The notes beneath the pieces are model-generated. The model ran no database searches, was not told the DNA's origin, and saw nothing but the letters and a program-made list of their open reading frames with translations. Positions 29,401 through 44,400 of a DNA stretch of 64,000 nt are shown here, one piece after another; within the stretch, counting starts at the first letter, position 1, and each line of letters begins with the position of its first letter. A program made the translations under genes and the position numbers. The stretch spans positions 4,388,084-4,452,083 of the forward strand of contig NC_087072.1 of the NCBI RefSeq assembly GCF_026151205.1, read 5' to 3'. Source of the DNA: Bolinopsis microptera. Taxonomy: Eukaryota > Ctenophora > Tentaculata > Lobata > Bolinopsidae.

Positions 29401-32400
29401 CGATCGGTGGTTAATTAACTCGATTATACTGTGTCGTAAAACCTGCAGAAATGACAGATATCGTGGATATATAATTGTGTCCCCATGATTATTCGGATGA
29501 TGTTATTTTATACTTTAATAAGATTTCTTGTACTTGACACCACGTAATACACAACGAAAGCAGTCCCTTCAAAAATATTTGTGACGCCTGCAGCATTCTT
29601 ATCTAATATCTTATCATATTAGATTTTCATCAGTTTATAGTTTATACTTTTAAATTTGTTTACAACTTCTGTCTTGTCTGCTAAATATACTGAAGATACT
29701 TAGCCTGCAGTGCAGTATCAGCATTCAGCCCATTTCCCAACCGCTCACGTTTGCTTCATCGCCTCATCATATATCAACAGTGTCAGGACAGAATTGAAAC
29801 TTCTATTTACTATCAGTAGAGATGGTTCATACTTTTCCAATTTCCATAGCGACACATTTACTTCTGCTTAATTCTTATCGGACAGATTAGTGGTAGGGTC
29901 ATGCTATACACCTCTAACTTGGTAATAATATATTAGCGTGACAAAGGGAAAATATACCACCGGTTTTTATCTAAAATGGAAGGCTAGGTACCGGTATATG
30001 CATTTAACGCCCTATTGATAATTGATAATTGATTTTCCATTGGTATATTATAATATATAAGTTCGAACAGTTAGCTTCAGGCATTTCTGACAATTAGTAT
30101 GGAAGTAATCTTTGATGGAGAGCTAAACTGCTCACCTTGTTTCAGAAGTCTTTAGAATGATATTAACAACTACCTTTCTTATAATCACGGTCCTGGTTAT
30201 ACTTCTGATAGTGGTTGGTACAAATTAGATTCACAGTTTACTTTACCATTTTACATTCAATCCGATCGTTCTATTTGCACTGTGTGCGCTTAGATTTAAT
30301 CAAGCTTTGAATTGCTGATATCTTGGCTGTTATCTTGTCTCCATATCCACTGTAAGGGCATCTTTCAGGACAAATGTGCGGAGGCAGCGGCGGTAGATGT
30401 GACTCTGAAAATGTACCACAATGATACCACAATCTGCTCAGCAGGAATATCGGGAGTTGGGTGTGATTTTAAGTTCACTATGGTTTTCGAAGGAGTTTCA
30501 TCAAGCCTGTAAGCTACTTGCATCTATTTCAAAGAAGATTCAGTCCACAAAAATGTCAAACCATCTTTAAGCCGGAAAAAGTTTAGACTGTTTAGTTTTA
30601 AAATAATTTAAACCTTTTTTCTTGTAATCATCTTGTATTTAAGAAGCATTATAGCCATTATTAGGTTATAACACGTCACCACTTTGTCCATAGTACGTAC
30701 AAAACGGTTGTAACGACGGATTTTACGGCTGACGCTAGCAACAACATAAACTTCAAAACAGGAAACGACGCCTTAAAGTCTGGAGTTTTTAATCCAATAA
30801 CGATAAATCTTAATTCTGTGGTGAGTCAAAACGTCAGCAGAACAGTATGTGTCGATCAGTTTGAAATAGAATTCAACTTATCCGATGTTTTATGAACTCT
30901 AAAAGAAAATTGAATCACGGCTTAGGATTGGTTAACTTTAAGAGCACAGACGTCACGATAAACGGTTCAACTTGATCCTTTACAATTACAGGAGGATTTA
31001 AAAATGAAAGTTAATGTGGTTGATGCTGATTATTTATTTGATGATAAAATTTCTGACTTCACGATGAACCTTGACATAAAAGGAAAATCAAGCAATGTTG
31101 AACACCTTGTAAAACACACAACTGCTCAGGGATCAGGGCAATTCCAAATATCATACAAGGTAAAATTATAGAAACGAAAAAAATTGGCCTCATGTTATAT
31201 TGAATTTTTGAATGGATCCATAGAAAATTAATACCGACTAGGAAGTTTATAGCGCAGACTCATTCATATGAACATGAGGAGGGTTGTCTGAACCCTTGAA
31301 AACATATCCCAAAACTTGACTGAACCAAGCGCCCTATTTTCAGGTTTATTGTGATGGTAACCATGGTGGCATTGGTTGTTGTGGGTGCATAAATAACTAC
31401 TACAACACTAACTGCACCAAGTTCTGTCAGCCGATCAACAATTTTACTTGTGATAGTAACGGTGAGAGCACACATTTTTAATTCTCTCTAGGCAATCTAC
31501 AACCTTTTTAATTTAGAATCTCATTCTAAAAACCAGGAATAATGTTCACGTTAAATACCATTAACCTCCCGCTTTATCCAGGTGACCACATTTGTAAGCC
31601 GAACTACTACAACACGAGTTGCAATGTCCACTGTGTTCCTACATCTCAATACAACTGCTCTCAAAACGGGACCAGGGACTGCTTGGGAAGATGGACCGGA
31701 GATAAATGTGATGTTCAAACTCCCTGCCCATCAGGTTGGCTTTAATGGAAATACTTTTAGTTCATAAATATAATTATCCTTTTCTAGTGGCTAGTTCGAA
31801 TTTAAGCTTTGTTTTCATACGCAAAAGCATTGATCATTGATGACTAATCGTCAGAGATATGACTGATTTGCATCTCATCAACACCTTTGCGGCTAAAGGA
31901 ATTTTTCATTGTGATGTAAATTTATTAAAATCCGACTTCTCAATACAAAATTTCAGGGAAGTTTGGTATGAACTGTTCCGTAAATTGCACGGCAGTTCCT
32001 AATCAATACACCTGCAACTCGACAACCGGAGAAAAAGTTTGTGAAACTCACTGGACAGGTTCAGAATGTGATTCCTGTTCACCAAACTATTACGGTGCTA
32101 ACTGTGACACTTTCTGTCAAGCCAGTGCAGCTATGAACTGTAGTAATACTGGGGAGAAGGAATGTTTGGGACATTTTACAGGACAGAACTGTTCTCTTTG
32201 TGAGACAGGGTGGTATGGGAGTGGATGTGATCTTTATTGTGATCTCAACAGTACATTGTGGACTTGTGATGACCATGGAAGTCACATCTGCAACGGAAAG
32301 AGAACTGGTATGGCAATAAAATATTTATGGTCGACATTCAAACCTGATTGCATATTTCTAATAAAATAATACACAGCAACTGGCATTAAAATAAAGCATC

Positions 32401-41400: not shown

Positions 41401-44400
41401 GTCCTAACTGTGATAGGTAAAAACAATCTCATTTTATCATTGTCATGTTTGTATCTGAAGATTTTCTAAATTTTTATATACAAGTTATCATTCGAATGTC
41501 GAAATTGTCTTAGCCGAAACGAACCCACTTTACCGAAACGAACCCACCTACTGAAACTTAAAACAAATTTCCACCGCAGATGTAAGGAAATGTATTTCGG
41601 ACTGAACTGCACGTGCAAAAGAGAGCCAGGAAGAGCGGAGTGTGATAACGAGGGGGTGTTGCATTGTCTGGGACACTGGACTGGTCAACTCTGTGATATC
41701 TGCATTCCCGGATACTCTGGACCTCAGTGCTCTCAACCAGACAAAAATCCTTTCAATAGTAAGTTTTCTGTGCGGTCAGTTTTCTATTATTTCTCTGCCA
41801 AATCATGTTGCCACTCAAAGTGGAGCTGCATAAGATTGGAAACAACTTAAAAGTCACGATACAGTCATGAAACTATTTCAGGGATTAAGGTGCTGGGGAA
41901 AGTGGTATACTTTTTCCTGGTCGCACTGGTTAGCGTTCTATTGGCAGTCATATGTACCTTCACCATCACCGTTTTGAGAAAACCAACAAAAAAATCACTC
42001 GCCAGAATCAGAACAGGAATCCGGAAAAATAAGATTTTCGATCAAGGTATTGATGATGATAATAAGCCGATAATGAAAAACAAGGGTAAAATGGTGTTTA
42101 TCGAGGATATGTGACTAAAGACTTATTTTCACAAAATTTATCACAAATTGATTCGAAGAATACAGGTCGAAACCGCCCTTTTCGTTTTTTCTTTTGCATG
42201 TATTTCCTAGTTTTTAGAATTTTTGAATGATTTATTACCAATTTCACAGTAACAAGTTTTCCGCCAAAAAGGTATCTATCAATAAATTAAAGTCAATTTT
42301 AGGGTTTCTGTCATCTTTTGATAAAACATAGAGATGGAATAGAATCTTGCTGTCAAATTATAGAATAAAATAGCAAAACTTGCGATTGTACTCACGTAAA
42401 AAGTGCTGATACAGGATTGGATGAAGAGCCACATTTTCTGTAGCGAGAGTTGACCCATCGTGTGTTGCTCCTCCAACTGAGCTATAAGGATCACATACTC
42501 TTTAACTAACGTTTTAATAGCTGCACACAGCGCTTGATTCACCTAATAGAGGTAACAGTGTTGAAGGTGACTCGGTTACATTTATATACAGGGATGCACA
42601 TCTTTTTTAAATCATTCAACAGAGAAGCAAAAAGCAATTAGTTTACCATGCCAGAGCTGTACTTAGAACAGTGATCGAGGAATCTGGTGACGATTGAGTA
42701 GCAGGAACAGAGAGGTAATATCTTAGTGACAAGACCTCCAATACCCGGATCTAACCCGTTCTGTGGGAAATTTGTTACGTTGGTGTGATAACATCAGAAC
42801 TTTGCATTTCTATATATAATACCTTACTCGGGATTATTACGACGGGTTTATTAACGACCGGTTAAAATATGGTTCGGGAAAAATATGGCGAAATTGCTCA
42901 AAACCCACCACATTTTCCCGGTCGCCATTTTACCGGTGTCCAACCTTTCAATTTTAGATTCAAAAATTTTGTCTCAGATGTAAATTTCCTTATTAGAGAT
43001 AAGCAAGTTTAGAAATTTTCGCATTGCTAAAACTTGTGAAACAAGTCGAATTTTCAATAATTGTTGAAAGTAGACAGAAATAATGACTCGTGGTTAATCA
43101 AACTAGATGGAAAATAATTTTTAACATTTGAAGCGTAACAACCAGATCGATATTAAGATAAAGGGAGAGCTGTTTAGTCTTCCAATAAGTTGTAATCATC
43201 TTCGTTATCTTCATCTGGATCATCCCTTTCATCAGTTTTAATTAATTCAAGTTTTAATTTAACTATTACTTTTACTTTGAGTCCTATTTCATTATGTAGA
43301 GATAGTCAATACCTAAGAAATTAAAAATTGGCCTATTTAAATCAAATTTGACAATAAGGATATATGACAAGAATTGGGCAAAAAGGTGAATTTTTTGCAA
43401 TTTTAGCCACATGAAGTCGAAAAACCTACAACAAGTGTCCCAATAGTCTTCTTTAGTGAATATAAGACAACGATTAAAATATGAGCACCCATACCCCTTG
43501 GGAACCCTAAAAGCTGAGTAGGCGGGTTTATTAACGACCGGTGAAAATGTGGTTCGGGAAAAATATGGCGAAATTACCCTAAACCCACCACTTTATCCCG
43601 GTCATAATAATCCCGAGTAAGGTAGTAGAAAATTGAAATACACATATTTTATTTCAGATCGAAAATTTGAAGTGACCCGGTTAATTAATGAGAAGGAATT
43701 AGCCTCGTACGATTTGCTTGAATCTGCGCTGTCCGAAAGGGCTCTCCAGCGGCTCCACCAAGATGTACTGTCCCTCAATCCCTGTCAAGACGAATAACAA
43801 GTCCTCCACTATCGCATTTTCTTGCTGAAAATGTTCTTTTTAGGTAAAAAGATAAAATCAATATTTAACTAAATTCATCTGCCATCATTTATAAGCCCCA
43901 ACTACCGAAATGAATTACATGTTATCACCGCTACCTGTAACGCAGTCATGGTGTGTAGAGGCTGTGGACCACATGAATACTCCTCATCCATAATTACAAA
44001 ATCTCTGGTAAGGAGGGTTCTAGCTACAAGATTTGGTAGCTTCTTCAGCTGCAGGGCTTTTCTTTTTTCCTCGTTTGCTTTTACAATTGCCAGCTGTGTT
44101 CTCACTTCTTCCACCTGTGTTCCAGTTTGGAGGTTACTTTATCTAAAAACATTTCTCGTAAAATTCGCCAGTTTCTTTGTTATTCGTTGTTTAAAGCAGA
44201 AGTTTTGAAGACTGGGAAATGTTGTTTAAATATTAAGCAGAAGGTTTGAAGACTGGGAAATATTGTTTAAATTAACTAAGCAGAAGTTTTGAAGACTGGG
44301 AAATGTTCACCTCTTTCTGAGACAATGCCCGAGGGATGGTCTCCAGGATAAGATCGGAAGCGTTGAGGTCAGAAGTAGAGTCGAGGCTGGTGAGATCTCT

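What the first reader, a model, noticed from the sequence alone, without database searches (positions are those of the whole stretch)
30157..42114. Surface proteins with a Notch-ligand head and a stalk of nine to ten DSL-type modules
Seen: genes B and C encode signal peptide, a C2/MNNL-like head, then a tandem run of C-x8-C-x3-C-x7-C-x7/8-C-x8-C modules with YYG/YFG/WYG and WTG signatures, a membrane span and a short tail. Known: Delta, Serrate/Jagged and LAG-2 ligands have one DSL next to the MNNL head, followed by EGF repeats. Inference: the DSL unit itself has been multiplied to build the stalk, giving a new ligand or adhesion-receptor class, possibly for cell or self recognition.
Basis: partly seen in the sequence, partly recalled or inferred. 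Interest (0 to 1): 0.85.

Follow-up and report, generated by a model that had tools for sequence, protein, structure and literature searches.

The report
Comb-jelly receptors with repeated Notch-ligand modules
Two neighbouring genes, probably from a comb jelly, encode cell-surface proteins whose long stalk is built from repeated copies of a module that normal Notch ligands carry only once, and they belong to a large family in that genome that looks more like adhesion or engulfment receptors than like Notch ligands.

Summary
Gene B (30157-34168, 688 aa) and gene C (38156-42114, 630 aa) have open GT-AG exon chains encoding a signal peptide, a ~145-residue head, a cysteine-rich stalk, one membrane span and a short tail. 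Pfam finds DSL 10 times in B (E 4.6e-53) and 9 times in C (E 1.4e-47); the last unit is laminin-EGF-like in spacing. A module profile hits only Notch ligands in the PDB below E 1e-3 (12 of 12). Most modules lack 3-4 residues of the Cys3-Cys4 loop that, from recall, contacts Notch; no EGF repeats follow. The head misses Pfam MNNL (0 of 11), but beats 100 of 100 shuffles against Delta C2 once heads of single-DSL loci are added. The source is probably a ctenophore (13 chromosomes, 265 Mb; homeobox found, nuclear-receptor zinc finger not found), a phylum described as lacking Delta/Jagged. It holds at least 29 genes with head plus DSL-type modules, some with tyrosine-rich tails, plus three canonical-loop DSL loci and a Notch-like receptor. 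Best reading: recognition/adhesion receptors working like Draper/MEGF10, not Notch ligands. Multi-DSL genes were noted in Nematostella in 2009: a new variant of a known kind.

The parts
25261..27436 (+). Gene A: putative signal exon (25261-25299) plus three head exons (26296-26432, 26889-27021, 27269-27436); no DSL match between it and gene B
   Evidence: exon phases as in gene C
30157..30213 (+). Gene B exon 1, signal peptide (donor gttggt, phase 0)
   Evidence: similar first exons in D and E
30369..31159 (+). Gene B head, exons 2-4 (30369-30508, 30694-30820, 30992-31159), C2/MNNL-like
31344..33498 (+). Gene B stalk, exons 5-10 (31344-31461, 31582-31734, 31957-32307, 32507-32884, 33040-33178, 33308-33498), 10 DSL stretches by Pfam
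33924..34168 (+). Gene B last exon: membrane span and tail with NPHY and C-terminal FIEDM
38156..38212 (+). Gene C exon 1, signal peptide
38582..39335 (+). Gene C head, exons 2-4 (38582-38712, 38820-38946, 39174-39335)
39559..41758 (+). Gene C stalk, exons 5-9 (39559-39676, 39807-40175, 40588-40965, 41278-41416, 41580-41758), 9 DSL stretches by Pfam
41882..42114 (+). Gene C last exon: membrane span and tail ending FIEDM

Best explanation
B and C are members of a lineage-expanded family of type I cell-surface receptors derived from the Notch-ligand plan: a C2-like head held away from the membrane on a rod of tandem DSL modules. Shown by computation: open exon chains, DSL identity of the modules, membrane span, family size, short Cys3-Cys4 loop, tyrosine motifs in some tails. 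Inferred: the head binds a partner surface (lipid, glycan or protein, possibly with Ca2+ through a V-x-D-x-D loop that B keeps and C has lost); the DSL rod acts as a spacer and no longer as a Notch-binding site; the tail recruits adaptors (NPxY in B and in the C11 gene; YxxL/I/V sites in some other members; a C-terminal FIEDM shared by B and C). It would work like the multi-EGF engulfment/adhesion receptors Draper/CED-1/MEGF10 without being a member of that family. Several stalk exons have symmetric phase, and the stalks of B and C are far less diverged at silent sites than their heads, so stalks seem to be lengthened and exchanged while heads diverge.
For: Modules are DSL: Pfam; module profile against the PDB gives 12 of 12 hits below E 1e-3 in Notch ligands, and in DLL1 matches the DSL (33.6 bits) but no EGF above 2.6 bits; the 12 top Foldseek matches are all Notch ligands, TM 0.66-0.80. 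Loop: of 67 pattern-matched in-exon modules in the fetched loci, 66 have 7-9 residues between Cys3 and Cys4 and one has 11, against 11 in Jagged-2 and DLL1, where the gap falls inside the RxRDDxFGH-type segment. Family: 25 of 36 head matches are full length without stops (the query itself among them), and all 25 lie beside a module match on the same strand (compared by hand); with B, C, D, E that makes 29. Tails: YxxL/I/V 10 against 1.76 expected, 6 against 1.38, 4 against 0.88, in three tails that I picked because they looked tyrosine-rich. Stalk exons compared (B 7-10 with C 6-9) have dS 0.24-0.43, head and exon 5 are saturated.
Against: No transcript, protein or binding data. Gene C's tail has no NPxY and B has one NPHY; D and E have NPHF. 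The long tyrosine-rich tails belong to a different, intronless branch; the tails of the C4, C11 and C13 genes were not counted and do not look tyrosine-rich. The Draper comparison rests on recalled features; no EMI domain was found. The head fold is not confirmed and several head comparisons failed. Four of five AlphaFold models of the module were poor and no Foldseek E-value was below 0.06. The last stalk unit is as laminin-EGF-like as DSL-like. A Notch-like receptor is encoded in the same genome, so Notch binding through the head remains possible. Head dN/dS among B, D, E is 0.33-0.46, no sign of diversifying selection; the D/E pair has stalk 0.65 and tail 1.49, the latter on 11 changes only.
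Confidence: 0.5

Rival explanations
1. They are true, highly modified Notch ligands: the C2-like head and the first DSL bind Notch, and the further DSL modules replace the EGF stalk.
For: Head followed by DSL-type modules, as in Delta/Jagged; joint head profile resembles Delta C2; a Notch-like receptor with EGF and LNR domains exists in the genome; short tail with a C-terminal motif shared by B and C.
Against: The 11 pattern-matched in-exon modules of the window all have the short loop; a half module lies between head and first DSL, and the first DSL unit has only four cysteines of its own; no EGF repeats; three loci with a canonical 11-residue loop are better ligand candidates.
Confidence: 0.2
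2. They are self/non-self or cell-type recognition receptors with variable heads on a homogenised stalk.
For: B and C heads are 31% identical while their stalks are 85% identical; tandem A-B-C cluster; large family.
Against: B, D and E heads are 90-91% identical with dN/dS 0.33-0.46; no polymorphism data; divergence between paralogues is not allelic diversity.
Confidence: 0.15
3. Structural adhesion proteins (epithelium or mucus) without signalling.
For: Gene C has a short tail without tyrosine motifs; 18 (B) and 14 (C) N-glycosylation sequons.
Against: B and C share FIEDM at the C-terminus although their tails are only 19% identical overall, which suggests a bound partner; three related genes have tyrosine-rich tails.
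Confidence: 0.12
4. Pseudogenes or mis-joined exons.
For: B needs a weak first donor; gene A lacks a stalk; in D and E an inserted element ends the frame before the FIEDM end.
Against: Open frames through 10-11 exons in four genes; stalk dN/dS 0.23 for B/C.
Confidence: 0.03

Closest known systems
Multi-DSL genes of Nematostella vectensis (Gazave et al. 2009, PMC2770060; passages read)
   Same: Tandem DSL domains (1 to 11) without EGF; one gene with MNLL plus 3 DSL.
   Different: The authors left open whether they were true genes or misassemblies. Here: chromosome-scale exon chains, membrane span, tails, and at least 29 genes.
Canonical Notch ligands (Delta, Serrate/Jagged, LAG-2)
   Same: Signal peptide, C2-like head, DSL next to it, single membrane span, short tail.
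   Different: 9-10 DSL stretches instead of one, no EGF repeats, Cys3-Cys4 loop shorter by 3-4 residues, Pfam MNNL not met.
Capsaspora 'Delta-like' receptor tyrosine kinase with two DSL domains (PMC4810162, passage read)
   Same: More than one DSL in an ectodomain.
   Different: It has EGF repeats and a kinase; B and C have neither.
Draper/CED-1/MEGF10 and SCARF1 multi-EGF receptors (domain and tail features recalled)
   Same: Long cysteine-rich stalk, membrane span, NPxY or YxxL motifs in part of the family; SCARF1 is the next PDB match after the Notch ligands.
   Different: Modules score as DSL, no EMI head, no EGF repeats.

Membership tests
[quoted passage not shown]
   Pfam PF01414, B 4.6e-53, C 1.4e-47
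Notch ligands (Delta/Serrate/LAG-2) | MNNL/C2 N-terminal domain | tested here: inconclusive
   Pfam MNNL hits 0 of 11 heads. hhalign against four Delta/DLL C2 fragments: all heads plus single-DSL heads score 28.6, probability 50, shuffled maximum 16.6 of 100; intronless heads 18.2, shuffled maximum 16.2; all heads 15.9, no control of its own; window-type heads 18.3 but over 12 columns; single-DSL heads alone 12.4, shuffled maximum 21.1
Notch ligands (Delta/Serrate/LAG-2) | One DSL followed by EGF repeats | tested here: not met
   9-10 DSL stretches; the only EGF-type matches are laminin-EGF models overlapping the modules
Notch ligands (Delta/Serrate/LAG-2) | Long Cys3-Cys4 loop of the Notch-contacting DSL face | tested here: not met
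   66 of 67 pattern-matched in-exon modules have 7-9 residues, 11 of 11 in the window are short; gap seen. That this loop contacts Notch is recalled.
Notch ligands (Delta/Serrate/LAG-2) | Binding and activation of Notch | not testable with these tools
   needs protein
Multi-DSL genes of Nematostella | Tandem DSL without EGF | tested here: met
   definition from passages of PMC2770060
Multi-DSL genes of Nematostella | Sequence homology of head and modules | not testable with these tools
Draper/CED-1/MEGF10 | EMI head and EGF stalk | tested here: not met
   no EMI match in B or C; EGF-type matches only as laminin-EGF overlaps of the DSL run
Draper/CED-1/MEGF10 | NPxY/YxxL tail | tested here: inconclusive
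   NPHY in B, none in C; NPVY in the C11 gene; YxxL/I/V excess in three other, selected tails

The most novel reading that the evidence does not exclude
In ctenophores the Notch-ligand plan split in two: proteins with one canonical-loop DSL (C2-like head, DSL, Sushi repeats) kept the Notch-ligand role, while a multiplied-DSL branch lost the Notch-contact loop and became a large family of tyrosine-signalling recognition receptors, an immune- or engulfment-type repertoire built on DSL instead of EGF, Ig or SRCR domains.
Probability: 0.3. Interest if true: 0.82.

Novelty: new variant of a known kind. Interest (0 to 1): 0.62.

Why it matters
A 2024 review states that Ctenophora have no Delta/Jagged (PMC11193209, passage), and another that M. 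leidyi has no diagnostic Delta domains although P. bachei has a Delta orthologue (PMC4810162, passage). If the genome is a ctenophore, it encodes many DSL proteins, three loci with a canonical DSL loop and a Notch-like receptor, so the view that the pathway lacks ligands there needs re-testing. It also shows that multi-DSL genes, left open in 2009 as possible misassemblies, can be real, and points to a receptor family, undescribed as far as my searches went, in a phylum important for early animal evolution.

Tried and rejected
Rejected: EGF or laminin-EGF identity of the run as a whole (EGF_laminin 39.9 bits against DSL 160.1 in C; 21.3 against 177.7 in B). The last unit is an exception: it has C-x1-C, and in C it is the best EGF_laminin stretch. 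Rejected: that B lacks an in-frame signal exon. D and E were modelled with the downstream donor and an upstream acceptor; the phase-0 solution may apply to them too, so the first residues of their models are uncertain.

Considered: gene A's head spliced onto B. Phases allow A head + B head + stalk (828 aa) and A head + B stalk (683 aa); no evidence either way.

Led nowhere: single-sequence AlphaFold of a three-module exon (mean pLDDT 34.6). The module alignment gave 80.7 for the best model but 50.8-60.3 for the other four, and Foldseek had no match at E 0.001 or below. MNNL search of the genome gave nothing, but introns split many heads and no control rang. Intron identity between B and C (0.82-0.84 over aligned positions) was too close to the one shuffled control (0.74) to use. 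Two glutamate-receptor genes against the PDB did not identify the organism. Single-DSL heads against Delta C2 and against intronless heads were not above shuffles (12.4 against a maximum of 21.1; 9.9 against 19.2); window-type heads against Delta C2 aligned only 12 columns. The 67-module count misses units split by introns and the canonical DSLs of L013, L014 and L019, whose Cys1-Cys2 spacing is 7.

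Full report
OBSERVATION. Gene C (38156-42114) is a clean 10-exon chain of 630 residues and gene B (30157-34168) an 11-exon chain of 688 residues. Both start with a hydrophobic segment and have one further hydrophobic span near the C-terminus. Between head and span lies a run of modules with spacing C-x8-C-x3-C-x7/8-C-x7/8-C-x8-C and mostly two residues to the next module. Counted by cysteines there are 10 units in B and 9 in C, of which the first has only four cysteines of its own and the last has C-x1-C. Pfam DSL scores 177.7 bits with 10 stretches in B and 160.1 bits with 9 in C; EGF_laminin scores 21.3 and 39.9, both at or above its cut-off of 21, and its best stretch in C is the last unit. 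A cysteine pattern finds 11 in-exon modules in the window and none in 10 shuffles of it.

ARE THE MODULES DSL? A profile of 19 module rows from the window was compared with all PDB sequences. All 12 matches below E 1e-3 are Notch ligands; SCARF1 follows at 0.011; in the DLL1 chain the profile matches the DSL at 33.6 bits and no EGF above 2.6 bits. The AlphaFold model of one module (mean pLDDT 80.7 for the best of five models, 50.8-60.3 for the others) has its 12 best Foldseek matches in Notch ligands, TM 0.66-0.80, but the best E-value is 0.06. The modules differ from canonical DSL in one place: in the profile alignments four residues are missing between Cys3 and Cys4, inside the RxRDDxFGH-type segment of Jagged-2 and DLL1. 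Of 67 pattern-matched in-exon modules in the window and 28 fetched loci, 66 have 7-9 residues there and one has 11. That this loop contacts Notch EGF11 is recalled; that the DSL as a whole binds EGF11 and the C2 domain EGF12 is stated in PMC5538765 (passages read).

THE HEAD. No head matches Pfam MNNL (0 of 11). MNNL may be poorly detected outside bilaterians: one paper found it in only one of five Amphimedon Deltas and not in other sponges (PMC5684314, passage), though two others credit Amphimedon Deltas with the domain (PMC4810162; PMC10970066; passages). Heads of window genes and of intronless genes are similar (hhalign E 1.5e-6). Heads of two single-DSL loci match window heads (score 33.3, shuffled maximum 21.1 of 100), and the joint head profile matches the C-terminal half of four Delta/DLL C2 domains at score 28.6 (probability 50) against a shuffled maximum of 16.6 of 100. 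Weaker or failed comparisons: intronless heads 18.2 (shuffled maximum 16.2), all heads 15.9, window-type heads over 12 columns only, single-DSL heads alone 12.4 (shuffled maximum 21.1). In the PDB search the alignment to Drosophila Delta continues from the DSL into the C2 domain, with the half module as a gap. I call the head C2/MNNL-like with moderate confidence.

THE FAMILY. In the same genome, D (C1:1.41 Mb) and E (C8:2.04 Mb) are complete homologues of B with one three-module exon where B has two. One head from the C7 cluster finds 36 matches, itself included; 25 are full length without stops, and all 25 lie beside a module match on the same strand (compared by hand). With B, C, D and E that gives 29 genes; partial heads and the multi-DSL loci on C4, C11 and C13:9.63 Mb come on top. 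Several are intronless frames that join head, modules, membrane span and tail, such as C7:6.460 Mb (1103-codon frame) and C7:1.715 Mb. Three tails picked as tyrosine-rich have an excess of YxxL/I/V: 10 against 1.76 expected (0 of 2000 shuffles reach it), 6 against 1.38 (2 of 2000), 4 against 0.88 (13 of 2000). B has NPHY, the C11:3.93 Mb gene NPVY, D and E NPHF, C none. B and C end in FIEDM although their tails are otherwise 19% identical.

EVOLUTION. Between B and C, head and exon 5 are saturated at silent sites, while the later stalk exons compared (B 7-10 with C 6-9) have dS 0.24-0.43; overall stalk dN/dS is 0.23. Exons 6, 7 and 8 of B have lengths divisible by three and phase 1 at both ends, so they can be duplicated or skipped without frame loss. 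This fits old heads on recently exchanged stalks under purifying selection. Head dN/dS among B, D, E is 0.33-0.46, so there is no sign of diversifying selection on heads; tails are looser (0.72-0.84 for B with D and E, 1.49 for D with E on 11 changes).

ORGANISM. G000 has 264.65 Mb in 232 contigs; C1-C13 are 15.2-26.2 Mb (about 258 Mb together) and C14 is 0.2 Mb. Homeobox gives 111 matches, nuclear-receptor zinc finger 0 and nuclear-receptor ligand domain 0; in the last two no control genome rang, so absence is not proved. Ctenophores sequenced at chromosome level have 13 chromosomes, and Bolinopsis microptera 265 Mb in 346 scaffolds (PMC11797021, abstract and table passage); that ctenophores lack the zf-C4 domain is recalled. 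So a ctenophore close to Bolinopsis is likely; it is an inference. The genome also has a gene with EGF and LNR matches and a hydrophobic segment, as in Notch (ankyrin part not examined), and three loci with the 11-residue loop: C3:3.446 and 3.452 Mb with Sushi matches, and C3:8.855 Mb. Full gene models of these were not made; L013 holds a further DSL-like frame about 4 kb away.

FUNCTION. Loss of the loop segment, absence of EGF repeats, family size and tail motifs favour a recognition/adhesion receptor over a Notch ligand; the likeliest working analogy is Draper/MEGF10, where a distal head captures a surface and tail motifs recruit adaptors (recalled). The C2 lipid binding of Notch ligands (PMC5538765, passages) makes membrane or lipid recognition by the head plausible; B keeps a V-x-D-x-D loop, C does not. 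None of this has been tested in protein.

PRIOR ART. Gazave et al. 2009 (PMC2770060, passages) reported the Nematostella multi-DSL genes. Searches for multi-DSL wording (4 papers, none on this by title), for ctenophore with Delta, DSL and Notch (9 papers), for Mnemiopsis with Notch, Delta and ligand (20 of 35 listed), for Nematostella with DSL domain and Notch (10 papers) and for ctenophore genera with 'DSL domain' (15 of 256 listed, none of these holding 'DSL domain') showed no description of a ctenophore multi-DSL family in the listings and passages that I saw. The M. leidyi immune-repertoire paper PMC11797021 holds none of 'notch', 'dsl' or 'delta' in its text. Subscription papers and supplements were not searchable, so this is not proof that it is unpublished.

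Noticed in passing
35755-36472: A 349-base inverted repeat, 98% complementary with a 20-base gap, between genes B and C: looks like a foldback or MITE element.
   Followed up: no
40423-40559: Tandem array of a 7-base unit (TCATCAT) in an intron of gene C.
   Followed up: no
46721-47605 (-): 294-codon open frame resembling ORF1 proteins of LINE elements (resemblance recalled); an open frame of similar length lies inside an intron of gene D (L009 8001-8900, minus strand).
   Followed up: partly
L009 about 6110-6270 and L011 about 7680-7890 (-): Coding-like piece resembling adenylate kinase 7 (recalled, read by eye) inside the first intron of D and E, absent from B: perhaps a captured gene fragment.
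   Followed up: no
L013 and L014 (C3:3.446 and 3.452 Mb): Similar loci with a C2-like head in three exon-like pieces, one DSL with the 11-residue loop and Sushi matches: candidate ctenophore Notch ligands.
   Followed up: partly
L033 (C9:10.306 Mb): Notch-like receptor gene with EGF and LNR matches and a hydrophobic segment; the piece between gave no Pfam match.
   Followed up: partly
L009/L010 and L011, last exons of D and E: A shared inserted element ends the D and E frames before the FIEDM C-terminus that B and C carry.
   Followed up: partly
G000: 32 matches to the glutamate-receptor ligand domain, 10 of them in single open frames of 900 codons or more: an expanded, largely intronless iGluR set.
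   Followed up: no
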